NCBI GenBank assembly: GCA_900095095.1
Contig: FMBT01000336.1
Location: 210,001-274,000, forward strand
Direction of reading: 5' to 3'
DNA length: 64,000 nucleotides
Origin: Fragilariopsis cylindrus CCMP1102
Lineage: Eukaryota > Bacillariophyta > Bacillariophyceae > Bacillariales > Bacillariaceae
In this document: piece after piece, positions 1,960 to 63,541 of the stretch
Layout: every line of letters begins with the position of its first letter
How positions within the stretch are numbered: the stretch's first letter is position 1
The notes under the pieces: generated by a model
Told to the model about the DNA's origin: nothing
The model's database searches: none
Seen by the model: only the letters and a program-made list of their open reading frames with translations
Position numbers and translations under genes: made by a program

Positions 1960-3327
1960 TTATTGCACCGCCTCTCTTGCTTTCATTTCCTGGATCACAT
2001 CTCTCAAATCAGACAGTACAAGTTTGTTATAATTAACGTAGTTAAGGTCATTTGGATCCTTAACTGGAATAGAACGTTCCTGTCCTTCCAACATACGATT
2101 GGACCTCAACAACATCATTCTACTGAATGCAACCCATTGTCCAAACGAACGACGCTTATCCCAACAACTCGCGAGGGTGTAAAACTTCTCAAGGGCCGCA
2201 CGAGCTTCTTTAGCTGCATGAAGATAATTCTTCTGTCTGTAGTAAATCTGAGATAGTAACATGTTTGGTTCACCGATGAAAGGGTTCAGGATTGCACTTG
2301 TGTTCAGTAAAGTAATCTGTTCCTTTTCTGTGAGACTTCTTTCTTCTGTAACGACTTTCCAGTAACTATCTCTAGACTGTTTATCATCATCATATGAAAT
2401 AACAGTTTGACAATGATTAAATATTGATGGAATTACATCGAGGTGATCTCTAATACCATAGCAGACAGCACTAAGCCAATAGAAACCCACTTCTGGTATT
2501 CCATTTCCAGGATAAAGACTATCCCCTCCATTCTCACTCTGATGATGCTTCCATCCATTTGATTCAACCATTTGATCTAGGTAGTCAGCAATAGTAACTA
2601 TAAGGATATTGGCAGCTGTTTTCCTATCTACATCCCAAGTCCCGCTTTCACTTCCCCGATGTTCAATTGTATGTGTTTCATTAGTAGAACAGACAGAGTC
2701 AGGACGAATATTATTAACGACGTCTTTGAAATGACAGAGTGGGCCTCTATGAGTCGTTCCAAATAAGTATGCCAATGCTTCAGCTTGTTCTCCGAGTAGA
2801 TCTTTAACTTCATCTCTATCCTCTTCATTATTGGAATCAAACAAGTAAAACTGAAATAAATCTCCCGAGTATGCCGTATGTAACAAACCTGCACGTCGTA
2901 CTTCCTCAGGTTGATCCCATGCTGAAAGTGTACCAAAGGTACCCGTTAGATGGGTGAAAAAAGGTGTGCGTGCGTGAGCGAATTCAACGGCTCCATCTAT
3001 TCTGCTTATTTTCTCGATCATTTCCTTCCCTTTGGGATCGATGACATCCCAGTCTTCATGTAGGACAGCAATAATCTTAGGAGGAATTACTGGGAATGGT
3101 ACTTCCGACTTTATGTGTCTATGTGCCGTCGTCGTTGCTTTGTTACTAATTGTCGATGTCAATGTTGTAATGTTGACTTCGAATGAACCATTTTCACAGG
3201 CCTCATCGAGGCTACATTCTTGTTGTTGATCTCCATGAGTGTTAATAGCCTCATCTGGTTCTGTATTGATAGAAGCAATGGCAAATCCTATATGTATGAT
3301 TGAGAGTAATGGTAATAATATCTTCAT
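1960..3327 (-). CDS. Secreted DUF6817-like protein with TPR-like C-terminus
   Basis: Intronless 455-residue protein from an ATG at 3327. Residues 1-18 form a signal peptide (MKILLPLLSIIHIGFAIA). After a Thr-rich linker, residues ~115-210 carry H..TPFFTHLTGTFGTLSAW, then AGLLHTAYSGDLF, which matches the pattern of the DUF6817 family (a short-chain HD-like helical fold of unknown activity). Residues ~350-400 (AILNPFIGEPNMLLSQIYY and the following helix pair ending AAKEARAALEKFY) look like one or two TPR units. Activity is unknown. The protein probably enters the secretory route. The family call is from motif memory, not a search. Confidence 0.75.
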   Translation of the reverse strand: MKILLPLLSIIHIGFAIASINTEPDEAINTHGDQQQECSLDEACENGSFEVNITTLTSTISNKATTTAHRHIKSEVPFPVIPPKIIAVLHEDWDVIDPKGKEMIEKISRIDGAVEFAHARTPFFTHLTGTFGTLSAWDQPEEVRRAGLLHTAYSGDLFQFYLFDSNNEEDRDEVKDLLGEQAEALAYLFGTTHRGPLCHFKDVVNNIRPDSVCSTNETHTIEHRGSESGTWDVDRKTAANILIVTIADYLDQMVESNGWKHHQSENGGDSLYPGNGIPEVGFYWLSAVCYGIRDHLDVIPSIFNHCQTVISYDDDKQSRDSYWKVVTEERSLTEKEQITLLNTSAILNPFIGEPNMLLSQIYYRQKNYLHAAKEARAALEKFYTLASCWDKRRSFGQWVAFSRMMLLRSNRMLEGQERSIPVKDPNDLNYVNYNKLVLSDLRDVIQEMKAREAVQ

Positions 3328-4313
3328 TGTTGAAAGAATTTCAACTCTTCTGACAGCGTCTGGTCAGTGAAATAGTCTCTTTCTGTCTCTATCTCTCTTT
3401 CAACGTTTCGATTCGTTTCGCTTTGGCAGTCAAAAGTGATGCTGGGATTGCTTGTTACGTAGCAGATTGGTTTTGTGATACTTCAAGTCATACCAGAGCG
3501 TTTCTACGATGCTTGTGTTTCGATGTTCCTTCTGCATTGTTTACAGAATTATATTCTTCGTTCATGTGCTTTTAAAAGAATTGATTTCTACTACGTGTGT
3601 GGACAGCCAAATTGAATGTGCAAATGCAAGCGATGCCCATCGAAGATTCAAGAATCATCATCACAAACTTCTCTAAAGCACGTGACCACCTGATAACTGT
3701 AATATTATTTTTTTGCTTCACACGAATGAATGATCTGTTAGATCGTAAAGATCCAAACGTGATTGGATGAGTCGAGTCGAGTCGAGGGAGTCGAATAGCG
3801 TCGCAGTTCAGCTCACGCTTTCGATATACTGTGTAACAAAGCAACAAAGCATTCATTCGAATTTGTTTTGTTATAAGAACAACATGGTCGTTGTTTGTTA
3901 GCATTCCATTTCGTGTTGAAGATGGTAATATTTCTCCCTTAAGGAGAGAGACACGACGACCGTCAATGGATCTATCATCGCATATCAAATCATAGTAGAA
4001 AGTCCAATCAATCATCTAATTATTTAGTCTCCTCCTACTACATAGCCATGACAATGAACAATATTACCATATCTGTCTTTTTGTTCTCTACTTCTTACTA
4101 TGTTGGGGTCTTTGTTCCAAGTAACAGCAACAGTCCACGCGTCAGGGGTAATAATTTATTTCGTAGCAGTCATGATACCTAGGTACCTATGTTTAAACTC
4201 ACATTGAAACGTAATATTGAGTCCTAACAACTGATTGCAACAAACGAAAAATAGTGTATAGCGAAAAACTACCAATATTGAATCGGCGATAACTTATAGT
4301 GATACAAAAATAT
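3328..4313. other. Intergenic, no supported gene
   Basis: A 147-codon minus-strand ORF at 3572-4015 has no recognisable domain, signal peptide or coding-like composition and is not accepted. A short tandem GAGTC/GAGTCGA stretch lies near 3775-3790. The region should contain the promoter of the minus-strand secreted protein and the 3' UTR of the epimerase gene. Confidence 0.5.
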
Positions 4314-17802: not shown

Positions 17803-20042
17803 TTAATTTTTCCATCTCGTAAACAGACGGCTCTTTTTGGTTGAGGATTTCTTATTTCTGGATTCATGATCATAGTTTCCATAATATCCAAGGCCACGGT
17901 CTGACGATTTTCTAGCATCTCCACCTCCGCCGTCCCCACGATCACCTTGGAAGCCTCTGCCCCCACCACGTCCACGACCACCACCACGTCCACCACCACG
18001 ACCGCCCTGATTACGACCGTCACCACCACTACGATCGACGTTTATCTTCTTATGCTTCATCAGTCCGTACTGCTGTGCCACTTTCACTCGCAAGGCAGGC
18101 GGTTCTTCCAATCCCGCTTGATTGGCAAACGCGTTGATCATGTCCACCACCGTATCGAGATGTTGTTGGATTCCTAGATTTTTAAAGTGCAGAAAGTAAA
18201 AACCAATCAGACTTTTGTAGCAATAACTTGCCCTATCTTTCATGATGTCGTCGTTCAAAGCACGTGTCATCCATTCGGGTGACGTTGCTTCTTCGATGAA
18301 TTCTTGCAATTCCTGGTTGGCAGGGATATCAATGCCGGTCAATTCGTTTCGAAGGACAGGTTTCACTTCTTTTTTGTCACTAAAGACCAGTATTCCTGTT
18401 CCACTCTTTCCAGCCCGACCAGTTCGTCCCAATCGATGGATGTAGGTTTCCCGATCCGTAGCTGATCCCACTTGTAAGACATGCGTTACATTGGGATAAT
18501 CGACTCCTCGAGCACTGACGTCGGAGGTGAAAAGAATTCCGGTGGTGACCTTTCGAAAGCGTTGACTAGTTTTGCTACGTTCGTTTTGGCTTAGTTTGGA
18601 ATGAATTTCCATAACCCGATGCGTTCCGCCATTCTTTTTGAATAAATTGACAAAGAATTCCACCTGAGCAGTAGTATTGAAGAAGACCATGAGTTTCGTT
18701 GTCGTTCCATCGGATTGTTGTTGCTTCATTAACTTATCAATCAATTGCACGACGCCTGTGATCAGTTTGGTCGGAGGAAGAACAACATAGGATTGCTCGA
18801 CGGTGTTGGCGACATGGCTGTTGGGATCGTCTTCTTGAATGCAGTCAATGGATTCGTAACTGGGATTTAGAAACCGTTGAATCTGTGTTTGTACAGTGGG
18901 TGGAACGGTGGCACTGAAGAGAAGAGTTTGTCGTCGATTTTTGGATGGCAGGTAACTGACAATTTTATGGATTTCGTCTCGAAACCCCATATCGAGGAGT
19001 CGGTCCATTTCATCCAAGATAAGAACATCAACGTTCTTGACGGTGTCTGCAAAATGAATACCTCTATCTTTGAGTTTCGAGGATTCCAAATGATCAATCA
19101 ATCTACCGGGTGTTGCCGTTAGAATAGTAGGCAAGCGGCGATCCAGCATCTGTAAATCTACTCCTCTGGCGGTCCCTCCGAACATAACTTGACAACTGGC
19201 ACCAACACCTTTATGAACTCTAACTAGACCTTCGGCAGTGTTATGAATTTGTGTTGCCAGCTCACGGGTGGGAGAAATGACAAGGATCCGGACGCCATCT
19301 TCGCCATCTTCTCGCATGTGGCCTTGTTGTATAATCCGTTCGAGAGTCGGCAGAAGAAATGCTAGTGTCTAAAGATAATAAGTAATAATCAATATAATTG
19401 GAGGTAGACAGAAATATATAAGAAGTGATGTTTGAGGGTCAGATAAAGCCTGTCAGCTTTGTTTCTAGTATCACATCACAATATTGTTATGTTACCTGCC
19501 TTTCCAGACCCAGTACGACTCCTTCCTACTACATCCTTGCCCTCGAGGACAGCATCCCAAGTCCTTGCTTGAATATCCGTCATACTTGTAAAGCCTTGTT
19601 GCGTCAATCTATTGAGCGTTTTGTGATGTAGATTCTCGAGATCGGCAAAGTATCGTGTCGTCGTATCTTCTTCTTCTTCTACTTTTTTTTCTTCAGCAGA
19701 GTTGTTGTTGTCGAGTTGCAGTGATGATGAGTCTGAGTCGTCGATGTCTACTGATGATACAACACCATCTAATGGTGACGGCGAGTTGATGCTGTTCGTA
19801 GAGAATAAGCGAAGTCTAGTATGAGGAGTCGAAGGGAGCAACAACCCCGGCGTTGTAGTAGAAGAACTGACAGGAAATTTCCGGTGCTTTGTAATTGTAG
19901 CGCTAGTCGTTTTAGTACAACAACATGTACATGTCCTACTAATTATTGTTGCTGCTCGTGTAGCAGCATTCCTTATTGGGCGCCGCCGCAACACAAGCAA
20001 CTGCGCCGAGGAGCGACGAGCTGTAACAATAAAAGCGGACAT
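17803..20042 (-). CDS. DEAD-box RNA helicase, probably mitochondrial
   Basis: ATP-dependent RNA helicase of 702 residues. Exons 19500-20042 and 17803-19368. The N-terminus (MSAFIVTARRSSAQLLVLRR) is rich in Arg, Ser and Ala and lacks acids, fitting a mitochondrial presequence. Motifs in order: Q motif (FADL...GFTSMTDIQARTW), I (SRTGSGKT), Ia (SPTRELA), Ib (TPGR), II (LDEMDRLLDMGF, DEMD in place of DEAD), III (SAT), V (SARGVDYP), VI (HRLGRTGRAG). An RGG/RG-rich tail follows (residues ~635-665), typical of RNA annealing. The intron is best read as GC-AG: AAAG|GCAGGT to TTTAG|ACACTA rebuilds GSGKTLAFLLP, whereas the nearby GT donor would break the frame or lose the Thr. Similar in layout to mitochondrial Mss116-type helicases. 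Confidence 0.93.
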
Positions 20043-27758: not shown

Positions 27759-28642
27759 CTAATGTTTAGCCTCTGCATCGACGTTGGCGGTTTGGATAAT
27801 GCCACGGCGGACAATCTCCTGCTTTAGCTCCTCATTACCAGCCGCCGCCTCAAGGAGGAGATCGCGGGCTATGGTCATGCGGGGCAGGTAGAGCTGGGCA
27901 CCACCGAAGAGCATATGTTTGGGGTCCCCACCAGCAAGGAGGAGCCAGATGAGGAAGAGGCGCACACGCTCGGCGTACACAAACTTCTCCACCTCGAATA
28001 AGAATTCAGTGATGTCAGCAACGGAGACTCCATCAGCCATAGCCTCCTCAGCACCGGCATCAATAGTGGTCTCGGCTCCCGAGGCGGTCTGTTGCAGGAT
28101 CAGATTGTTGATGCGAGGCATCGCAGTCGCCAGGAGACGTTGGGAAAGGTAGTGCCGGGCGAAGGCTTGTCGGGAGGCCAATGGGGCGTAGGGTCCTGGT
28201 TCCCCCGGACTAGGGGTCCACCCGATGGAGTAGCGCATGTCGCCCAAGACCATGAAGTGGTAGGCAATGTCAAACACCGCTGGTCGCCCTTTAGTCATTT
28301 CGTGGTCCACAATCACACAAGAGTATGAGGACTCGGCATCTTCGTTGGGAATCTTCATTAGGATGTTATTAGGATGGAAGTCGCCGTGGGTGACAGTGGT
28401 GGTACTAAGCATCTTCGCGAATCGACTTGTGGGTGCAAGACGTAGCACTTGCTGCTGATGGCGACAGTAGTAGCTTCTCCTTCTTCCGCATCGACGATCG
28501 TGGCCTCGAGCTTGAACGTCTGACCGGTGGCACCACCGGCGAGAAGTGCTAACTCCAATTTGGCAGATTCAGGAAGCGCTAGTAGGGTTCTGGCTTCAGC
28601 CATCAGAGCAGACTTCTCATCGTGGGAAATTTCGACAGGCAT
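27759..28642 (-). pseudogene. Choline/aminoglycoside kinase-like gene, internally truncated
   Basis: Two overlapping minus-strand frames. The first (ATG 28642) has an N-lobe start, ELALLAGGATGQTFKLEA; the second, from about 28440 to the stop at 27759, has the catalytic loop THGDFHPNNILM, the metal motif VIVDHEM and AVFDIAYHF, as in choline/ecdysteroid/aminoglycoside phosphotransferases. Between them most of the usual N-lobe and linker (perhaps 70-100 residues) is missing and the frame changes, so this reads as an internal deletion plus frameshift. It is intronless and clearly GC-richer than the AT-rich DNA on both sides, suggesting recent insertion or transfer from another genome or a GC-rich locus. 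A GT microsatellite abuts its start. Confidence 0.7.
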
Positions 28643-28757
28643 GTGTGTGTGTGTGTGTGTGTGTTTTCGTGTTTGACTTTATCCGTATGTGAGAAATGGT
28701 GGAGGATGAACGCCATATATGTGTACCATACAAACGATACAAACACATGGATTTCAA

Positions 28758-28947: not shown

Positions 28948-29234
28948 CACATCAATGATCATAACATCAATAAAACAATTAGTGTACCAGTACACAATAC
29001 AGTACGGTACTACGGTAAGTTAGTGCGGTATGTGCTTCGGTGAATAAGCGAACATGCCCGAAGAAGTTGTCAAATCGCAATCGTAAATAATGCGAAATGA
29101 TAAGGTCATAAAAGAATACAAATAATAAAATCAACGAATGAATCAAATCAATCAATCAATCAATCAAATCAATCAATCAAATCGAATAGCAATAAAAGTA
29201 CACGTTCTAATAATACGAATAAAAAAATTCCACC

Positions 29235-29723
29235 ATGTCGTCGATCATACAAGTAGTAGTAGTACCAGAGAAGAATCAAGAAAGAGATGAAGAAATTCAT
29301 ACTATGTTGGAAATGCTGTCATTGTCATCGAAGATAAGGGAAGATAGTTGCCCAGGAGCTTCTGTTTCATCCGATGTAGAGACGTCCTCATCATTATATG
29401 ATGATGAGAATACTAATACTGATAATATATCACCACTTCATTATTATACACGAATTGAAATCTCATGTCATAATACTGAAGCATCGGCATGGATTGTGGC
29501 GGGTGATGATATTTATGATGTGACCGATTACGTCGAACATCATCCGGGTGGCAAATCATCTTTAATGAAAAAGATTGGAGGTACTGTGGATTGTACCAAA
29601 GATTTCATGTTTCATTCGAAATCAGGACAAAATCATTGGAAACAATATTTAATAGGAAAAATCACGAAATCTCCATCCAAGAATGGACATATAGTAGAAA
29701 AAGAATGGTGGAAGTTTTGGTGA
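29235..29723 (+). CDS. Cytochrome b5-like heme-binding protein
   Basis: Intronless, 162 residues. The N-terminal ~75 residues are acidic and Ser/Asp/Asn-rich without a clear targeting signal. The b5 fold follows at about 80-150: AWIVAGDDIYDVTDYVEHHP, then GG, and DFMFHSKSGQNHWKQYLIG. The HPGG His and the His of FHS are the expected axial heme ligands. No membrane anchor is visible, so it is probably soluble or needs a partner. Cytochrome b5 domains carry electrons to desaturases, hydroxylases or reductases; the partner is not evident from the neighbours. Confidence 0.85.
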   Translation: MSSIIQVVVVPEKNQERDEEIHTMLEMLSLSSKIREDSCPGASVSSDVETSSSLYDDENTNTDNISPLHYYTRIEISCHNTEASAWIVAGDDIYDVTDYVEHHPGGKSSLMKKIGGTVDCTKDFMFHSKSGQNHWKQYLIGKITKSPSKNGHIVEKEWWKFW

Positions 29724-32427: not shown

Positions 32428-35400
32428 ATGGAGGCGCCACTTCTATTGGATCTTGCATTAGGTGATCCCACGAGCATCGAGGACAGTATTCGTGTTTTGG
32501 AGCTTGCCGGTCGGACTTTGGTGCGAGCGGTAACCGTCATACAAAATGTGGTCCGCGATTGGCTCCGTGCGATAGCAGCCGCTGTTACTATACAGAGTGT
32601 AGTCCGTAGTTCTCAATTGCGACAAAAACAAGGAAAGGGAAGCAATTATACAAAAAAAGGTTCACCCAGAATTGTGCTGCCTCTAAAATTCAAGCCTTCT
32701 ATCGATTGTACTTGGTCAAATGTGATGTAGGAAATATTATACATCTTTGTGAAACGTTCAAAAGTGCCTTTGGGATCAGTAACAATATTCCAAACGTTGA
32801 CTTAATCGATCACGATGGGTTGTTGCCAACTTGGACGCGAATAGATGCGGATACCACCCAGGAAAATGACAATACAGAAACAGCCACGAGAGGCAAAGAT
32901 GGGGAAACCCAGGTAATAACGAAGATTTGGGAATTTGCGAGGCAACGAGGGATGGTCTGTAAAACAGAGGAGGAAGCTCAAAACTCCATGTGGCGTAATC
33001 GTGGGGTTTCTATCAACGCTAAGATTCTACTTTCTCTTATATCAAATCCAGAAGTGGATATTGATACAAAAGTTCTCTCCCATTCATTCCTTGGTGAACT
33101 ACTGTTGTGGTCAGCCGTAGATGTGGGAGATAACTCTCTTCCACCTGATATTATGAGAAGCATTGAGTCTATGTGTGTCAACAATCTCCCCTCGAAGAAT
33201 TGGGGCATTTTTCGTGGCGCAGTGCTTATTCTTGGGGAGCTTTGTCATCTCCAGAAACCTAGCCAAAACTCTGTCTCAAGCGATATGCTGGTGAAACTTC
33301 TCAACTTGTTACGTCTTATTTTTATGAGTTCTGATAACCCAGTGTATGATTCATTTTCTTCCAGTCTACCGAGTCAAGATTGTCGTGTGGCATGGGGAAC
33401 TCATGTTGGATTCGAAATTATTCGCTTGCTTCAAGGATACTTTTCGTATTTATCATGGGATCAACTTCTAGAATGCCAATATTTGAAGACTTCTGTTCTT
33501 GTGTGGGCAGATGGAACGAAAGCTTGCTCTCGACCGAGGGATGTGGTTCATAGTGCGTGAGATGAGTGGCCGACTGACGATATTGCCTTCCATAAATTTT
33601 TGCGGGATTCAGTGCATGCAATTATAAATAGTGCCAACAAAGTAGAGCGACATCTTCTGGAATTAATTGCCATGTACTTATTAAATGGGATACAACATAT
33701 CTCACTTCCATTAAATGTACAGAATGAAGACAACATTATGGGCCCAACAAATGTAATGTATGCAAGCAACACCACAAATATAGGTGATCAACTCAGTTGC
33801 AATTGTATTGCACGGCTACTTGTAGAAATATTTGTTGCCGCTCACGGTTGCGGCCTGTACTTCTCATTTCTGATCGACACATTTCAAAAGGACTTTTGCA
33901 TTGAAAGTTTCAGAGATTATAGCCCTACTCGTTCAGGATGGATGAGTGGAGTATTTTGTGGTAACAATGCATTGCTATCAGTTGTGGATCTCTCAACACT
34001 ATCATCCAGTTTGAACGAACACTCTACCGATAACCAACAACTGATTGCTTTATATATTCTCAGAGGTCTTTCTTGTGAAGAGTTATTAAAGCATGTGAAA
34101 ATAGACGCATACATGTCAGCTATCTGCAGATTTCCGGATACTCTGTTGGGTGCGTGGTTCCATCGACGCAACAATCCGATTGGATTTCAACTCGAAAACA
34201 TCCTGGCGCACTGTGCAGCCTCCATCAACAGTATGGATTGCTTAGGTATGTATGGGGGGGGATCTTAATTTACTAATTGAACCGAAGAAGAAAAACACAC
34301 TTCTGCATACGGCGGCTTTCTATGGTTCAGAAAAAGTATTGCGGCTGCTCATTAAAAGAGGTATGCAATCAACGGTACGAGATATAGATGGTGATTCTCC
34401 TCTTTCAATTGCAAGGCGGAGGAAACATAAAGATTGCGTGACTATATTGCAGGGTATATCAGATAATGATAACAGAAATATTGAATATCTTGTAACCGCT
34501 ATTGAAACTCCAGGGCCTGCTCTTATTTCGGTTGCCACTGTCACCAAAACGCAAACAAAGAAGGAAAAATCAAAAAAGAAACGGAAAAAAGAAGAAGAAA
34601 ATCAAAGAAGTAGAGCCTGTAAACGATGTCTCAGAGCGAGATGATAATGCAGATGCCAGGACTGTAGGGGTAACAGAGGACGCAAAAAGGCATTCAGATG
34701 TGCTTGCCGAAATTTTCGGGGAAGTAAGCAGAATCAAACTTTCTATTGATACTGCTAAAGAAATATTTGCCGCTCAGCAAGAGATCCCAGAACATGACAA
34801 TATTGTCAGAATTTTAAGCTGTGAAATTAATAACAACGAAGGTAGTTTAATGCTTGAGCCAACTGGCGGGAGACTCGAAGCGCTTATTTCGCTCGTATTT
34901 AGCAGCCAACCTAATACTCATGTATATTCTTTCGATATGCGTCTAAGATGGTGCCATCAACTCCTTTTGGCAATAAGGAAAGTGCATTTATATCGCGTTC
35001 ATGGTAATATTGATACTATGAATATTTTCTACACAAGTTCCCTTGACAGGTCAATTACTGTTAAACTTGGTCCTGTGGCTGATAGGAAGTGTTTGAGCAG
35101 TATCTATCATTCAAGAAATATTTTCTACACCTCGCTACCTTCCTCGTCACTTGCCTTGGATACAGGCGCTGATATAGCTGCGGCCGGGTGCATTCTTTCA
35201 TTGCTTCTTTGTGGACATCACATATATGGTTTGGAGTCTGTAGATCAATGCAGTAATATGGAACACCGTATCCTCTTCAATAAATCAAAAATAAAGGATA
35301 TGAGCGTAGAAGCATGTGATCTGATTGAGCGTATGGTTGAAGGTTCAGTAGATACAGACACTTGCCTTAGTCACCCTGTCTTTTGTAAGGCCCGAAAAAG

Positions 35401-35722
35401 ATTAGCTTATATTTCAGAGTTAGTGAGAACTGGCAAGCACCTTCGCCTCCCATCAGATGAAAAACTTGGTCTTGGCTCGGACTGGCGAAGTAAGCTCAAG
35501 TCCGAAGGTGTGTTAGTACGCCACTTGAGTTCAAGTCTTTCTTCATATGGATGCCATCCAAGTGATCTTTTGCGTCTCTGCCGTAATTTCTACCAGCACC
35601 CACCTACGGATTATCAGGGATGTGACCTTTTTGATGATGCCATCTTGGATCTTCAGAAATTTCGCTCGTTATTTCTTGATTTGTTCACTATCTTTGGTCC
35701 TGACCCTCTATGTTATTCCTAA
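32428..35722 (+). pseudogene. IQ-ankyrin-pseudokinase-KEN protein (RNase L/IRE1-like), interrupted
   Basis: About 1,100 codons in four frame segments. Order: IQ motifs (AVTIQSVVRSS; AASKIQAFYRLYLVK), a long helical region without known family, ankyrin repeats near 34262-34480 (NTLLHTAAFYGSEKVLRLLI, GDSPLSIARRRKH), a pseudokinase near 34700-35390 (HGNIDTMNIF instead of HRDLKPxN; LGP instead of DFG), then a KEN domain to the stop (DWRSKL, YGCHPSDLLRLCRN, FYQH). The Trp (35483-35485), Asp (35564-35566), Arg (35582-35584) and His (35597-35599) match W632, D661, R667 and H672 of RNase L in order and near-identical spacing. Breaks: an A7 run near 32652, an in-frame TGA at 33558, a G8 run at 34254, an A-rich stretch near 34570-34600. 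Decay, or homopolymer assembly errors, cannot be separated here. Confidence 0.75.
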
Positions 35723-36356: not shown

Positions 36357-37292
36357 CTAATTCTTCTTCTTCTTGTTCTTGTTGTTGTTCTTGTTCTTGT
36401 TCTTCTTCTTCTTCTTTATGAATGCACATTTCCCGAGTCCCGCTTTTTCTCCACAAGTTACGGGACACCAAACGAACACCTTCTTTTTCTTGTGCTTCTT
36501 TTTACATTTCTTTTTCATCTTTTTACCTTTTTTATTGCCAACCCATTTCCTGCACGATTTATTCTTCTTTCGAAACATTTCGTCGTCAACGAGGTCACAA
36601 CTCTCGTCGTTGCATCGGTCCAATCCTGCCTGATCGCAATCGTTGCGGCGGCTATTATCGCAAGCTTCGTAACCAAAAGTGTCAAGGGCTGTGAAGAAAA
36701 AATACGCCAAGAGTTCGCAGTTGACTTGACCGGCACATGTGGAAAGCATGTCGTCATAAAAGTCATCGTCGCAATCGGAACCTTTCTTGGAACAGTCAGC
36801 ATAGCAGATGTCATGGGCATTGCATTGGTTTTCGAATCCAAGGGTTTCCGTCAACGTGTCCCTCAAAAACGAAGGGATCCGAGACGTTCCGCATCCATTG
36901 GTGTCTAAGCCGAAGTCGCCACAGTAATCTTCGTCGTACTGTAATGCGACGGTGCCAAAGTTTGCGTCACGCCTTTTATTGTGGTTGCTCTTTGTGCTGG
37001 TGGTTGCTTCGGCGAAGCAATCTCCGTTGGGGTCGATCCGGCAAAAGACGTCGGGACTTTCCAACCAGCTTTGACTGTCGTAAAGAGATACACAGCCGTT
37101 CGAGTCAGTACGAGCCCCGCCGGACGGACCGACTCTATCGTCCGAACCGTAATCATCGTCCCAACACTTCACCAAGGCTCCTACGACGGGACTATCGTTG
37201 ATAGTGAAGCAGACGTTGGTGGTGAATCCAGCAGTTGCCAAAGAAGGTGACAGAACAAAGAGGCTGAAAGATGCAATAAGCGATTTCATCAT
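36357..37292 (-). CDS. Secreted phospholipase A2-like protein, basic Cys tail
   Basis: Intronless, 311 residues, ATG 37292. Signal peptide MMKSLIASFSLFVLSPSLATA. Residues ~22-110 look like a small beta domain with Cys pairs (GFTTNVCFTIND...VKCWDDD...NGCVSLYD). The PLA2 core is CNAHDICYADCSKKGSDCDD, with the catalytic HD pair, followed by FYDDMLSTCAG; upstream YCGDFGLDTNGCG may supply the calcium loop. The lysine-rich C-terminus includes SCRKWVGNKKGKK and VFVWCPVTCGEKAGLGKC, a six-Cys ShKT-like pattern seen in other diatom secreted proteins, and ends in a Lys/Asn run. It should hydrolyse sn-2 acyl esters; this is inferred from the HD motif. Confidence 0.78.
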   Translation of the reverse strand: MMKSLIASFSLFVLSPSLATAGFTTNVCFTINDSPVVGALVKCWDDDYGSDDRVGPSGGARTDSNGCVSLYDSQSWLESPDVFCRIDPNGDCFAEATTSTKSNHNKRRDANFGTVALQYDEDYCGDFGLDTNGCGTSRIPSFLRDTLTETLGFENQCNAHDICYADCSKKGSDCDDDFYDDMLSTCAGQVNCELLAYFFFTALDTFGYEACDNSRRNDCDQAGLDRCNDESCDLVDDEMFRKKNKSCRKWVGNKKGKKMKKKCKKKHKKKKVFVWCPVTCGEKAGLGKCAFIKKKKKNKNKNNNKNKKKKN

Positions 37293-37560
37293 GACGGAGT
37301 AACTACTTCTTTTTATCGAATAACGAATATTTGCTGTTGCGATTTAGAGCTGAATAACTGTCAAGTTATAAGTTTTGATCAGAATGGATACCAACTCGCT
37401 GAGTTCTTAAGATGATGGTTGCACTTTTTAAAATAAACATGACTTAAAGCGTACTTCAAGTACGAGTTCTCTTTTTCACAACATTTACACTTTTTGCTTT
37501 GAATTATTAGATAATTATATTATTATTAAAGCGTACTTCTCTTTTTCACAACATCCCACA

Positions 37561-38310: not shown

Positions 38311-40150
38311 ATGGTTTCCTTCACTACTGCAACTTCCGCTCTAGTTCTTTTAGCGTCGACTGTCAACGCTTCTTTCGAAACAATCGCCAACTATGGACCA
38401 GCATCTCAAGTAACCGATCACGTAAGTCAGCCTCCTTTTTCTTTATAAAAGAAAGGATCAAATATGATATAACATTGAATTTCGACATCCCCATTGATTC
38501 GTTAAGACTTACCCAATCATTTTCTTTTTCTTTCAATTTAAACTATATATATATATTATCTTGTTTATGTAGAATGCGATCGATTTGGATCAAGAAGAAA
38601 TGGAATTACAATTGGCACTTGGTAACGACGAGGCCTATGCCAATGCCCTCAAGATTTATTCGGAAGGTGCCTATTCCAAATCCACTGCGAAGGTGACCTT
38701 ATCTGCTGCCATCGGGAGTGCAATTTCCAAAGGAACTGCCGTGACTGGAAAGAATGCGGCTGGGAATCAAGTCATTGGTAAAACGTACGAAGATTATGCC
38801 AGTGGTGCCACTGATATTTTAGTTCAGTACCAAACCACCGATAGTCAAAAGAATTACGTCGATTGTCAAGTCGGTGCCTCGTTAACACCAAACACTGTTG
38901 GGTGCTTTGCGGCCTCTGGATCTATGGCGATTGATGGTGTCGGTGATGCTACGTACACGTACGATCCACTTACCGATAATATCAACAAACGATCCATTCA
39001 AGGATTTTCGACTGCCGCCAAAAAGAAAATGGCCGAATGTGAAAACTGTCCGTACAAGATGTATCAAAAGTTTTATGATTATTATGGACAATACGATTAC
39101 GCCAATCAAATTACCTTAGCGGCCATGTCGGGACAAAAAACCAACTTTGATAACTTTGATATGGATATGGGTTTGTACGGATTTGATGGAAGAACTCGTA
39201 AGTTGTTATATCATATATATCTATTTGAAATGGAATGAATCTATTGATCTTTCTGTTAGCGTTATTCCAGCACGTCGGAAGTCAATTGCATCGATGCACT
39301 AACACCAAATTATTCTTTTTGTCTTACTTATCACACAATGTAATTTCATGCTACCTCTAAATTCAAAAATATAGAAATGATCAAGAAGGGTACTGCTTAC
39401 ATGACAATTTGGATGTACGTGATCCGTGAAATGGAAGATGCTCTTGATGATTGTAAGGAGGCATGTACCATTGAAGACTGTAATGATGATCCTGTCCATG
39501 CTTGGGATGAAGGTGTTGCATTCTACACTGGATCCCTTGAAGGTTCCGATGGATCTGGATCTGGTAAGCTCGCGTATGCCCTCGCGGACAAACGATGCGC
39601 CAACTTCAAGACCTGTGGAGATATGGGTGATTCCTCGACGGGTGGATCGCATGTAAATATTGAAATTTTCAAACAATTTAGTATTGGACAAAGTAAACTC
39701 ATGCAAGGTCAATGTGCCTCGGCACGAGAACAAAAGGTCAATATCGAAAACTTGATGCTGGTTCCACTCATCCAAGGGTCACTCCGTTACGCCTGGAAGA
39801 TGGAGAATGAAGATTACAGTGAAAAGGCCGAAGCCGAGGGTGCCATCTTCGCCGCTGCCGTCTTACCTGTCGTACACGCATGTGATGCAGGTGCTGCACA
39901 AACTATTGCTGATAATGTGAAGGTTGGAAACCAAGGATCTGGAAACTTCGCTGCCGTTAAAACTGCCTTCGAATCCACATACGAGTGTATGGGTGTCAAC
40001 GGTGACCACGTTGGTGGACTTTACGATACTGCATCGGCATCCTACTATGCAGGTGCTGAACCTATGGGTGGATCTGGTGCTGGAAAGATCAGCATGACTT
40101 TCGCTGCCGCCGGTGTCGCTGCACTCACGTCTTTGTTCATGTTGGTTTAA
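38311..40150 (+). CDS. FEA1-like iron-assimilation protein, probably GPI-anchored
   Basis: Exons 38311-38421, 38573-39197 and 39375-40150, GT-AG introns, 503 residues. The signal peptide is MVSFTTATSALVLLASTVNA. Sequence such as YGPASQVTDHNAIDLDQEEM, NPVHAWDEG-type HAWDEGVAFYTGSLEG, YALADKRCANFKTC and GTAYMTIWMYVIREMEDALD follows the pattern of the algal FEA1/high-CO2-response family, whose domain also underlies diatom phytotransferrin. The tail GGSGAGKISMTFAAAGVAAL and following hydrophobics is a good GPI-attachment signal. Expected role: iron binding or uptake at the cell surface, often induced by iron limitation. Assignment is from remembered family motifs, so the exact subfamily is open. 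Its 3' end has been copied twice downstream. Confidence 0.75.
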
Positions 40151-61261: not shown

Positions 61262-61675
61262 TATTACTGAGAATATTTTTATATAGTGGACGACAGCAAT
61301 AGTTATGCAATTTGTGGCAATTAATGGCCCTGGTGCTATTACTCTTTGCCTTTCTCTCTCTCTCTCTCTCTCTGTATTGTACGATGGATATCTTTCTCTC
61401 CTTCTCTTTATTCTTGGATATGAAATAAGAAATTACAATTCTTGCTCACACGAATAGAATAGATTTTTTTTATCTATGCCCCTTTATTGAAGATCTCTTA
61501 TTTTTTCATCTGTTTTGATTTGAGCACAATACGGTAAGTTACGGTAATTCAAGAAGCTTTTCGACTTCGAAGCTTGGACCAGCATGAGAAATAACGAGAG
61601 AGGCAACATCAAAAGACAGCATAGTCCTATACCCTATACTAATACCGTATCAACACAAGTGTTTATACTACTATA
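61262..61675. other. Divergent promoter region with TC microsatellite
   Basis: Contains a (TC)n run at about 61351-61373; no gene seen. Confidence 0.6.
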
Positions 61676-63541
61676 ATGTTAGATCCAACCGTTGTTGCTG
61701 CCTGTGATCTGGCGGTAAATTTCGTGTTTGGTCCGACAGCCACATACCGACCGATTGGTTCGGCAGCCGATACTGCCTTTTCAGGATCAGCGGTCATCGA
61801 ACTTGAGGTTCTTGTTGTGATACCAAAAACAAAAACGACGAAACCGACGACGACGACGATGACTAACGGTAAGAATAATGCTCATAATACAAATACAACA
61901 CGTGTTGTTTTGAAGCATAGTGCTGTTCGAACCTTATCAAAATCTTTTGTCACTACTAGTACTTCCGAAGAAGAGGGTGATACTATAAAATCAAGTAAGA
62001 AATATGCAGCAGCACTGAAGGTCGATCAAAGTAGTCGTAATGAATACGCTTTTCTACAATCGTACTCGGAGAAGTTATTACAATTACCTCCTAATACTAT
62101 CGACAACGACGGCATCAGCAGTAGCAATAAAAATAAAAATAAAAATGACGATGACGAGGAAGAAGAAATCAAACTAATACAAACTAAAACAAGGATACCA
62201 CGAACTTTATATGCGAGGAATCATCCCACTGAGGGAATTACATTGCTGTTAGAATCATTGTCGTCTTTTGGTGGTTGTGGTGATGATAATGATAATGATA
62301 ATGATAATGATAATGATAAGGATAATGACGACCACAGCAATCGTCATCACAGCAGGGATAACAATGCCGATAACAACGACGAGATGACGACGCCGACGAC
62401 GACGACCAGTAGTAGTACCAGTAGTGGTGGTCGCGTGACTGTAATCCCTCTCGGACCAAAACTGAATGCCACCCTGGAATGGCTTGCAAATTTTCATGCA
62501 AATTTTTTACCACGATCCTTAAATCCAAATACCTTTTTGAACGATGACAATGACAATAGTGATAGTGATTTTGCGGCAACAAAAGAAGTGAAAGAAAAAG
62601 AGGAAAAAGAAGAAGAAGAAGAAGAAAAGAAGTTATCATCCTTACTGTGGTCCATCGGGACGCATCTTTCACTTGAAAAACGATCACCAATAGAACTTCA
62701 ACAACTTCCTAGAGATCTAACAGAATTTGTGGAACGATTTCAAAATATTGATAATGATCATGATAATGAGAATGATTGTTGCTGTAGCTATTTCCAAACA
62801 CTACAAGCAAAACAACAGGGTCAACGAATACAAGATGTGGCAATGGATGTTGCTCACTATTTACATCCGGATAACAATCCCGCACACAAGACAATAGTTC
62901 ATGGTGATTACAAACAAGGGAATATGTTCTTTGCTGCTACTGCTACTAATAATAATAACACGACTGCTGTCACTACCACTGCCACCTCTTCTTCCAGCAG
63001 AAATAATGGTGATAAAGAGATTGACATTGACATTGATGCCGCCCATCAGCATCAGGAAAAAATTGCTGTCTTTGATTGGCAATGGACTGGACCAGGATTA
63101 GGTGCCACCGATCTTGTGTATCTTTGTGTGATGGCAGTTTCCGATGAGGCCTTGGTCGATTACGAAACGACTATACTACGACCGTATCACAACTATTTAA
63201 TCCAAGCGTTAACTAACGTTACAAGGACTAATAATAATAAAAACAAGAACGTCGGCGATGGCACTACTACCACCACCACCACCAACTACGATGAATTATA
63301 CCCATACAATCATTTAATCAATGAATTTAAAATTGCGATGATTGATATACAACGATGGATGGGTGGATCTCGATATAAATCAATGACAGTAGAAACTGTC
63401 CAAAAAGCGAAAGAAAATATCGATATCAATCATGGTATATTCCGTCGATCGATGACACGAATTGTTTGGATATTCAAGATAGTGGATTTAGCATTAGATG
63501 ATATAGAATCTGGACGAATACAATTGCTTAAACATAAATAG
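61676..63541 (+). CDS. APH/choline-kinase-like phosphotransferase
   Basis: Intronless, 621 residues, much longer than the usual 300-400 because of low-complexity inserts (Thr-rich near 55-75, Asn/Asp near 140-160 and 200-225, Glu-rich near 300-315, Asn/Thr near 420-440). The N-lobe has TLSKSFVTT and KYAAALKVDQSSRNEYAFLQ (candidate ATP-site Lys). The C-lobe has the catalytic loop IVHGDYKQGNMFF near 408-420 and the metal motif VFDWQWTGPGLGATDLVYL near 464. These are the signatures of aminoglycoside/choline/methylthioribose-type small-molecule kinases. Substrate unknown; no signal peptide. In-frame GATAAT repeats (62276-62322) encode an Asp/Asn tract. Confidence 0.82.
   Translation: MLDPTVVAACDLAVNFVFGPTATYRPIGSAADTAFSGSAVIELEVLVVIPKTKTTKPTTTTMTNGKNNAHNTNTTRVVLKHSAVRTLSKSFVTTSTSEEEGDTIKSSKKYAAALKVDQSSRNEYAFLQSYSEKLLQLPPNTIDNDGISSSNKNKNKNDDDEEEEIKLIQTKTRIPRTLYARNHPTEGITLLLESLSSFGGCGDDNDNDNDNDNDKDNDDHSNRHHSRDNNADNNDEMTTPTTTTSSSTSSGGRVTVIPLGPKLNATLEWLANFHANFLPRSLNPNTFLNDDNDNSDSDFAATKEVKEKEEKEEEEEEKKLSSLLWSIGTHLSLEKRSPIELQQLPRDLTEFVERFQNIDNDHDNENDCCCSYFQTLQAKQQGQRIQDVAMDVAHYLHPDNNPAHKTIVHGDYKQGNMFFAATATNNNNTTAVTTTATSSSSRNNGDKEIDIDIDAAHQHQEKIAVFDWQWTGPGLGATDLVYLCVMAVSDEALVDYETTILRPYHNYLIQALTNVTRTNNNKNKNVGDGTTTTTTTNYDELYPYNHLINEFKIAMIDIQRWMGGSRYKSMTVETVQKAKENIDINHGIFRRSMTRIVWIFKIVDLALDDIESGRIQLLKHK

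What the first reader, a model, noticed from the sequence alone, without database searches (positions are those of the whole stretch)
32428..35722. RNase L-like architecture (ankyrin-pseudokinase-KEN) with IQ motifs in a diatom
The order ankyrin repeats, kinase fold, KEN ribonuclease is best known from animal RNase L; IRE1 shares only kinase-KEN. Here the kinase has lost the catalytic Asp (HGN) and DFG (LGP), as expected for a regulatory pseudokinase, while KEN keeps the Trp, Asp, Arg and His that correspond to RNase L W632, D661, R667 and H672 with matching spacing (D+6=R, R+5=H). The N-terminus adds IQ (calmodulin-binding-type) motifs not found in RNase L. This suggests a calcium- or ligand-gated RNA-degrading stress or defence factor in a stramenopile lineage.
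Basis: partly seen in the sequence, partly recalled or inferred. Interest (0 to 1): 0.88.

Follow-up and report, generated by a model that had tools for sequence, protein, structure and literature searches.

The report
Interrupted RNase L-like gene, probable alga
An algal-looking nuclear gene, not readable in one piece in this sequence, strings together calmodulin-type IQ motifs, ankyrin repeats, a dead kinase and a probable RNA-cutting KEN domain, an arrangement known best from the animal antiviral enzyme RNase L.

Summary
The finding holds at its coordinates. On the + strand, 32428-35722 carries in order three IQ-type motifs (one above Pfam's cut-off), about 490 residues of unknown sequence, about three ankyrin repeats, a kinase-like domain with HGN for HRD and no DFG Asp, and a C-terminal stretch resembling the KEN ribonuclease. 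The KEN match is weak (Pfam E 0.008 for the cut piece, under the curated score). It is still the only ORF of 749 in the window to reach E 1 on my KEN profile, beats 5000 of 5000 shuffles, follows the kinase directly, and keeps W, D, R, N and H with RNase L/IRE1-like spacing. The gene cannot be read through: three frame changes and one internal stop. Introns, assembly errors and recent decay cannot be told apart here. It differs from RNase L in its short ankyrin array, probable loss of the nucleotide site, and IQ motifs. A survey tabulates KEN with kinase 'along with ankyrin repeats' in eukaryotes, which may mean RNase L alone. The collections searched hold no eukaryote genomes and gave no relative; both structure models failed. 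RNase activity, calmodulin gating and dimer activation are inferred; the algal origin is likely, not shown.

The parts
32428..32655 (+). Piece 1 (frame 1): first ATG and two IQ-type motifs (VTVIQNVVRDWLR 32530-32568; VTIQSVVRSSQLR 32584-32622)
   Evidence: PF00612 E 1.8e-4, 21.4 bits vs cut-off 20.3, two stretches at the lax limit of 10; positions
32664..33557 (+). Piece 2 (frame 3): third IQ-type motif (32679-32720), then start of a region of unknown sequence
   Evidence: PF00612 19.4 bits in the short cut, 15.4 in the whole ORF, both under the cut-off; no other Pfam family at E<=1
33558..33560 (+). In-frame TGA between pieces 2 and 3; an intron around it (for example GT-AG 33553-33612, 60 bases, in frame) cannot be excluded
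33561..34250 (+). Piece 3 (frame 3): rest of the unknown region, running into the first ankyrin-like repeat (near 34194-34250)
   Evidence: no Pfam family at E<=1; its H-x-A-A marker at 34209 lies 32.3 residues before the next
34251..34263 (+). Frame change in or beside a run of eight G, inside the ankyrin repeats
   Evidence: frame change preferred to an intron but not proven
34264..34500 (+). Piece 4 (frame 1): ankyrin repeats
   Evidence: PF00023 E 6.9e-9, PF12796 E 8.7e-9 (piece 34246-34500); period 33.0 residues; 410 distinct PDB sequences at E<=0.1, best ankyrin-1/-2
34547..34625 (+). Lysine-rich linker holding the last frame change (frame 1 to 2)
   Evidence: A-rich direct repeats 34547-34610
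34697..35368 (+). Piece 5 (frame 2), first part: kinase-like domain; VHGNIDTMN 34997-35023 at the HRD place, VKLGPV 35060-35077 at or next to the DFG place
   Evidence: PF00069 E 1.9e-6, 27.9 bits vs cut-off 31.7; titin kinase E 1.5e-4; positions
35369..35722 (+). Piece 5, last part: KEN-like domain; P-x-F start 35375-35383, W 35483, D 35564, R 35582, N 35585, H 35597, stop 35720-35722
   Evidence: PF06479 E 0.0082, sub-threshold; 0 of 5000 shuffles reach its score, only ORF of 749 at E<=1; alignment; motif

Best explanation
This is one nuclear gene of a eukaryote, probably an alga, that cannot be read through in this sequence. Its product would be an IQ - unknown region - ankyrin - pseudokinase - KEN-like protein, a probable distant relative of RNase L and IRE1 that works like them; I do not file it as a formal member of either. 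Shown here: the order of the parts, the loss of the HRD and DFG aspartates, and the kept W, D, R, N and H of KEN. Inferred: calmodulin (or a like protein) binds the IQ motifs and a partner or ligand binds the ankyrin repeats; this releases or brings together two molecules; the pseudokinase serves as a dimer platform without needing ATP; the paired KEN domains cut RNA. The interruptions are few for about 1,100 codons: unrecognised introns, assembly errors at homopolymers, or recent decay. My evidence does not choose among these.
For: Pfam IQ, Ank, Pkinase and KEN hits in the right order on one strand. KEN piece: 9.4 bits on a four-sequence RNase L/IRE1 profile, 0 of 5000 shuffles as high, best shuffle 6.5; of 749 window ORFs only this one appears at E<=1. 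The W...D-x5-RN-x3-H motif occurs in 1 of 749 ORFs; 9 of 400 shuffled windows held any. F, G, W, DLL, RN and a late F and P are shared by all 5 aligned KEN sequences. HGX in place of HRD is typical of pseudokinases (PMC4718504). The pieces follow each other on one strand; each of the five has no stop in its frame and G+C highest at codon position 1. The ankyrin period continues over the G-run (32.3, then 33.0 residues).
Against: KEN and kinase are both under Pfam's curated scores. The KEN piece alone has no PDB hit at E<=10; hhalign gives a probability of 11.7% (E 0.0025); the whole ORF scores only E 0.34 on my profile. The nearest PDB kinase is titin, not IRE1 or RNase L, and the titin match runs to residue 317 of the ORF, through the first 26 or so residues of the stretch I call KEN (base 35446), so the P-x-F start is not specific to KEN. 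The usual FW there is FC. The catalytic H is not invariant in my alignment because the human chain 4oau has N at that place (an engineered change, recalled). Both structure models failed (mean pLDDT 34.4 and 34.8). No relative was found. The tail after the histidine aligns poorly. In piece 5 a minus frame with 22 stops scores slightly higher in codon use.
Confidence: 0.6

Rival explanations
1. The C-terminal part is not KEN: this is an IQ-ankyrin-pseudokinase scaffold of CAMK-like descent whose tail resembles KEN by chance or convergence.
For: KEN is sub-threshold, hhalign probability is low, the best PDB kinase is titin, which I recall as CAMK-type, and its match runs into the KEN-like stretch. 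IQ motifs suit calmodulin partners.
Against: Right place behind the kinase, W and D-LL-x3-RN-x3-H in register, 0 of 5000 shuffles as high, only one of 749 ORFs.
Confidence: 0.2
2. KEN-descended but dead here: the gene is a recently decayed remnant or a null allele.
For: Three frame changes and one internal stop. A kinase-like gene fragment lies nearby (27759-28678), so decayed genes may be normal here.
Against: The RNase residues are all kept and each piece keeps an open, mostly coding-like frame, so any decay is recent. Introns are not excluded.
Confidence: 0.3
3. The frame breaks are sequencing or assembly errors and the gene is intact in the organism.
For: The gene's only two long homopolymers (A7 at 32652, G8 at 34254) lie beside two of the three frame changes; the third is in or near an A-rich repeat.
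Against: An in-frame TGA also exists. Pfam domains of some other window genes are open over all or most of the profile: sulfotransferase 2-213 of 215, ZIP 75-310 of 323, DUF6817 6-85 of 85. Real slippage mutations fall in the same places.
Confidence: 0.3
4. Some or all breaks are spliceosomal introns and the gene is whole.
For: Frame-keeping GT-AG pairs exist at each break (14, 11, 5 and 26) and GC-AG pairs too (9, 8, 8 and 27). A helicase gene of the window reads TGSGKTLAFLLP across an apparent GC-AG intron (19369-19499), not across the GT donor beside it.
Against: Such pairs are common by chance and no control was run. At the G-run all 5 GT-AG pairs cut out recognised ankyrin sequence: the join of 34246-34330 scores 23.5 bits on PF00023 against 36.0 unspliced. 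Seven of 8 GC-AG pairs there would spare that core while removing the weaker first repeat, so an intron is not excluded.
Confidence: 0.25
5. Two or more neighbouring genes, not one.
For: Five separate ORF pieces.
Against: Same strand, overlapping ORF ends, and an ankyrin repeat spans the piece 3/4 border in period. The first methionine of piece 5 lies inside the kinase-like part (read by eye).
Confidence: 0.08

Closest known systems
RNase L (2-5A-dependent ribonuclease, vertebrates)
   Same: Ankyrin repeats, pseudokinase and KEN in this order (PMC4061530, passages); D+6=R and R+5=H as in the pig chain 4o1o; RN pair kept
   Different: About three ankyrin repeats; HRD and DFG aspartates lost whereas RNase L binds nucleotide canonically (PMC4718504); IQ motifs and about 590 residues before the ankyrin repeats; no evidence for 2-5A sensing
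IRE1 / Ire1p
   Same: Kinase followed by KEN; DLLRLCRNFYQH against DLLRALRNKYHH of the yeast chain 2rio
   Different: No active kinase motifs; IQ and ankyrin parts in place of a luminal sensor; a transmembrane segment was not tested for
KEN proteins tabulated in the HEPN survey (PMC3710099)
   Same: KEN 'Fused to S/T/Y-Kinase, along with ankyrin repeats, CCCH in some' (table passage)
   Different: No IQ motif is mentioned in the passages seen; species not seen by me, so the ankyrin cases may be RNase L alone
Titin-type kinases
   Same: Best PDB sequence match of the kinase part, E 1.5e-4 with KEN and 2.7e-3 without
   Different: The match explains neither the ankyrin repeats nor the W...D-x5-RN-x3-H motif

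Membership tests
KEN (PF06479, RNase L/IRE1 type HEPN) | Profile match at the curated score | tested here: not met
   16.7 bits vs 23.3
KEN (PF06479, RNase L/IRE1 type HEPN) | R-x4-6-H catalytic motif with a polar residue after R | tested here: met
   RN-x3-H, R at 35582, H at 35597; definition from PMC3710099
KEN (PF06479, RNase L/IRE1 type HEPN) | Directly C-terminal to a kinase-fold domain | tested here: met
   Pkinase match then KEN-like stretch in one ORF
KEN (PF06479, RNase L/IRE1 type HEPN) | KEN fold | tested here: inconclusive
   single-sequence model of mean pLDDT 34.4; not searched further
RNase L | Ankyrin repeats before the kinase | tested here: met
   about three, fewer than the nine I recall for RNase L
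RNase L | 2-5A binding by the ankyrin repeats | not testable with these tools
   no usable model; binding residues not compared
RNase L | Pseudokinase with canonical nucleotide-binding residues | tested here: not met
   HGN at the HRD place, LGP or PVA at the DFG place, against PMC4718504
IRE1 | Luminal sensor domain and transmembrane helix | not tested
   No Pfam sensor domain appeared; no transmembrane prediction was made
IRE1 | Active kinase (HRD and DFG aspartates) | tested here: not met
   both missing
IQ motif proteins | IQ profile match at the curated score | tested here: met
   21.4 bits vs 20.3 for the first piece; the motif of piece 2 stays under it

The most novel reading that the evidence does not exclude
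A family of RNases in diatoms or related algae in which calmodulin binding at IQ motifs, not 2-5A or ATP, controls pairing of a nucleotide-free pseudokinase and so switches on an RNase L-like KEN domain: a calcium-triggered RNA-decay response, perhaps against the RNA viruses of algae, built separately from the animal pathway.
Probability: 0.2. Interest if true: 0.8.

Novelty: new variant of a known kind. Interest (0 to 1): 0.5.

Why it matters
If intact copies exist, they would show that the ankyrin-pseudokinase-KEN plan of animal antiviral RNase L occurs in an unrelated algal lineage, with a calcium-type input in place of 2-5A. They would also be a natural test of whether the KEN nuclease needs nucleotide binding by its kinase partner. 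It would give algal biologists a candidate for regulated RNA decay in stress or infection. If this copy is dead and no others exist, it is a curiosity.

Tried and rejected
Relatives: seven scans or searches found none. IMG/VR with the kinase-KEN piece, pieces 2 and 3, a KEN alignment led by the window's KEN and one of known KEN sequences led by yeast Ire1; GTDB with kinase-KEN; plasmids by tblastn. These collections hold viruses, prokaryotes and plasmids, so absence says nothing about eukaryotes.

Structure: kinase-KEN and pieces 2+3 were folded without relatives; mean pLDDT 34.4 and 34.8. No fold search was made on such models.

Introns: I listed frame-keeping GT-AG pairs of 36 bases or more in a set stretch at each break (14, 11, 5 and 26, of which 25 of the last were printed), and later GC-AG pairs (9, 8, 8 and 27). 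At the G-run all 5 GT-AG pairs remove recognised ankyrin sequence; the join of one (34246-34330, GTATGT donor, TTCAG acceptor) still scores 23.5 bits on PF00023 against 36.0 for the unspliced piece. I first held the break to be a sure frame change; the GC-AG pairs made me weaken that. No chance control was run for such pairs.

Middle region: no Pfam family at E<=1 apart from the IQ motif; PDB best E 0.39, AP-1 gamma; a helical repeat is possible but unproven.

A first motif pattern was mis-set by one residue and found nothing; one search is the corrected one. No second copy in the window: tblastn at E<=1 found only the five self matches. No Rfam family at gathering score; no tRNA in a bacterial-code scan.

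Literature: searches. Among the titles and abstract beginnings listed I saw no ankyrin-kinase-KEN protein of diatoms or other stramenopiles. Lists were capped: 20 of 19,270, 20 of 1,514, 10 of 22; searches returned nothing; the library is open-access only. Seen in passages: PMC3710099 (plus section 9 whole), PMC6025073, PMC4061530, PMC3019232 (the word KEN not found; oomycete kinases with ankyrin repeats reported), PMC4718504. PMC4536996: abstract beginning only.

Full report
What is there. The + strand between 32428 and 35722 is covered by five open pieces: 32428-32730, 32610-33560, 33561-34268, 34246-34644 and 34496-35722. They carry IQ motifs, a long region of unknown sequence, ankyrin repeats, a kinase-like domain and a KEN-like end, in this order.

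How strong each part is. Ankyrin is beyond doubt (PF00023 E 6.9e-9; 410 PDB sequences at E<=0.1). One IQ match passes Pfam's cut-off (21.4 vs 20.3); the one in piece 2 does not (19.4 in a short cut, 15.4 in its ORF). The kinase match is significant by E-value (1.9e-6) but under the cut-off (27.9 vs 31.7), as expected of a diverged pseudokinase, and it begins at model position 53, so the start of the N-lobe is not recognised. KEN is the weak link: E 0.063 in the whole ORF, 0.0082 when cut out, 16.7 bits against 23.3.

Testing KEN against chance. I built a profile from four KEN sequences printed from PDB chains (human and pig RNase L, yeast and human IRE1). The KEN piece, cut by me at 35369, scores 9.4 bits; none of 5000 shuffles reaches it (best 6.5). 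Of 749 ORFs of 40 residues or more in the window, only this one appears at E<=1, at a modest 0.34. The motif W-x18-36-D-x5-RN-x3-H occurs in 1 of 749 ORFs; 9 of 400 shuffled windows hold any match. The pattern was chosen after seeing the sequence. In alignment all five sequences share F, G, W, DLL, RN and a late F and P; the H is N in the human 4oau chain. Against: hhalign probability 11.7%, E 0.0025; no PDB hit for 35393-35719 alone at E<=10; and the titin match runs through base 35446, so the first 26 or so residues of the stretch are as much kinase end as KEN start. Position directly after a kinase is the added argument for KEN. I put KEN homology at about 75%.

The pseudokinase. HGN faces the HRD place (alignment to titin HFD). 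A review notes that HRD to HGX is a change to which many pseudokinases converged, with the R-to-G change in 19 of about 50 human pseudokinases and 8 of about 500 active kinases, and that mouse MLKL has Asn in that motif where the human protein has Lys (PMC4718504, passages). The same review describes RNase L as binding nucleotide in the canonical mode, so the present protein probably differs there. By PDB sequence the nearest kinase is titin (E 1.5e-4; 0.0027 for the kinase piece alone), so descent from the IRE1/RNase L kinase is not shown by the kinase part.

The breaks. Frames change three times (near 32650-32662, near 34251-34261 and between 34547 and 34625) and one TGA stands in frame at 33558. 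The gene's only two long homopolymers, A7 at 32652 and G8 at 34254, lie beside two of the changes. At the G-run the ankyrin period continues across the change (32.3, then 33.0 residues between marker positions). All 5 GT-AG introns that fit there would delete recognised ankyrin sequence, and the join of the best-looking one scores 23.5 bits on PF00023 against 36.0 unspliced. This favours a true frame change, but 7 of 8 GC-AG pairs in that stretch would spare the recognised core, at the cost of the weaker first repeat, and the window's DEAD helicase gene reads the canonical TGSGKTLAFLLP across an apparent GC-AG intron, 19369-19499 (with the GT donor at 19495 the frame does not fit). So introns, errors and decay all stay open. 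The sulfotransferase and DUF6817 domains of the window are open over nearly the whole profile and the ZIP domain over most of it. Each of the five pieces has no stop in the chosen frame and G+C is highest at codon position 1; codon score is best in the chosen frame for 4 of 5 pieces.

Whose gene. The spliceosomal-type intron and a Fea1 domain at 39344-40147, which I recall from algae including diatoms, suit an alga. No call names the organism, and no genome is held.

What it does. The best reading is a dimerisation-switched RNase in which the IQ and ankyrin parts take the input, the dead kinase pairs the molecules, and KEN cuts RNA. [quoted passage not shown] For the protein here every one of these steps is inferred.

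Known or new. KEN joined to kinase with ankyrin repeats is known from RNase L and tabulated for eukaryotes in general (PMC3710099); [quoted passage not shown] A KEN protein in an alga is thus expected; the IQ front, the short ankyrin array and the loss of the nucleotide site make a new variant. I rate interest at 0.5: a good lead that rests on one interrupted copy and a sub-threshold nuclease match.

Noticed in passing
27759-28678, - strand: Fragment of an ecdysteroid-kinase-like/choline-kinase-like gene (PF02958, profile 212-263 of 294 only); the ORFs listed upstream show no full N-terminal part by eye, so it may be truncated, broken or split by introns. Another EcKL match lies in a 632-aa open frame at 61643-63541.
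   Followed up: partly
19369-19499, - strand: Apparent GC-AG intron (GCAGGT...TTTAG, 131 bases) inside the nucleotide-binding loop of a DEAD-box helicase gene; the join reads TGSGKTLAFLLP without stops.
   Followed up: yes
39344-40150, + strand: Fea1 (low iron-inducible periplasmic protein) match, E 5.9e-6; a likely algal iron-uptake gene.
   Followed up: no
36357-37343, - strand: Group XII phospholipase A2-like ORF (PF06951 E 0.0011, under its cut-off) with a lysine/asparagine-rich tail.
   Followed up: no
29223-29723, + strand: ORF with an HPGG motif that looks like cytochrome b5 (recalled motif, no profile run).
   Followed up: no
1960-3363, - strand: DUF6817 domain, E 1.6e-19, in a 467-aa ORF.
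   Followed up: no
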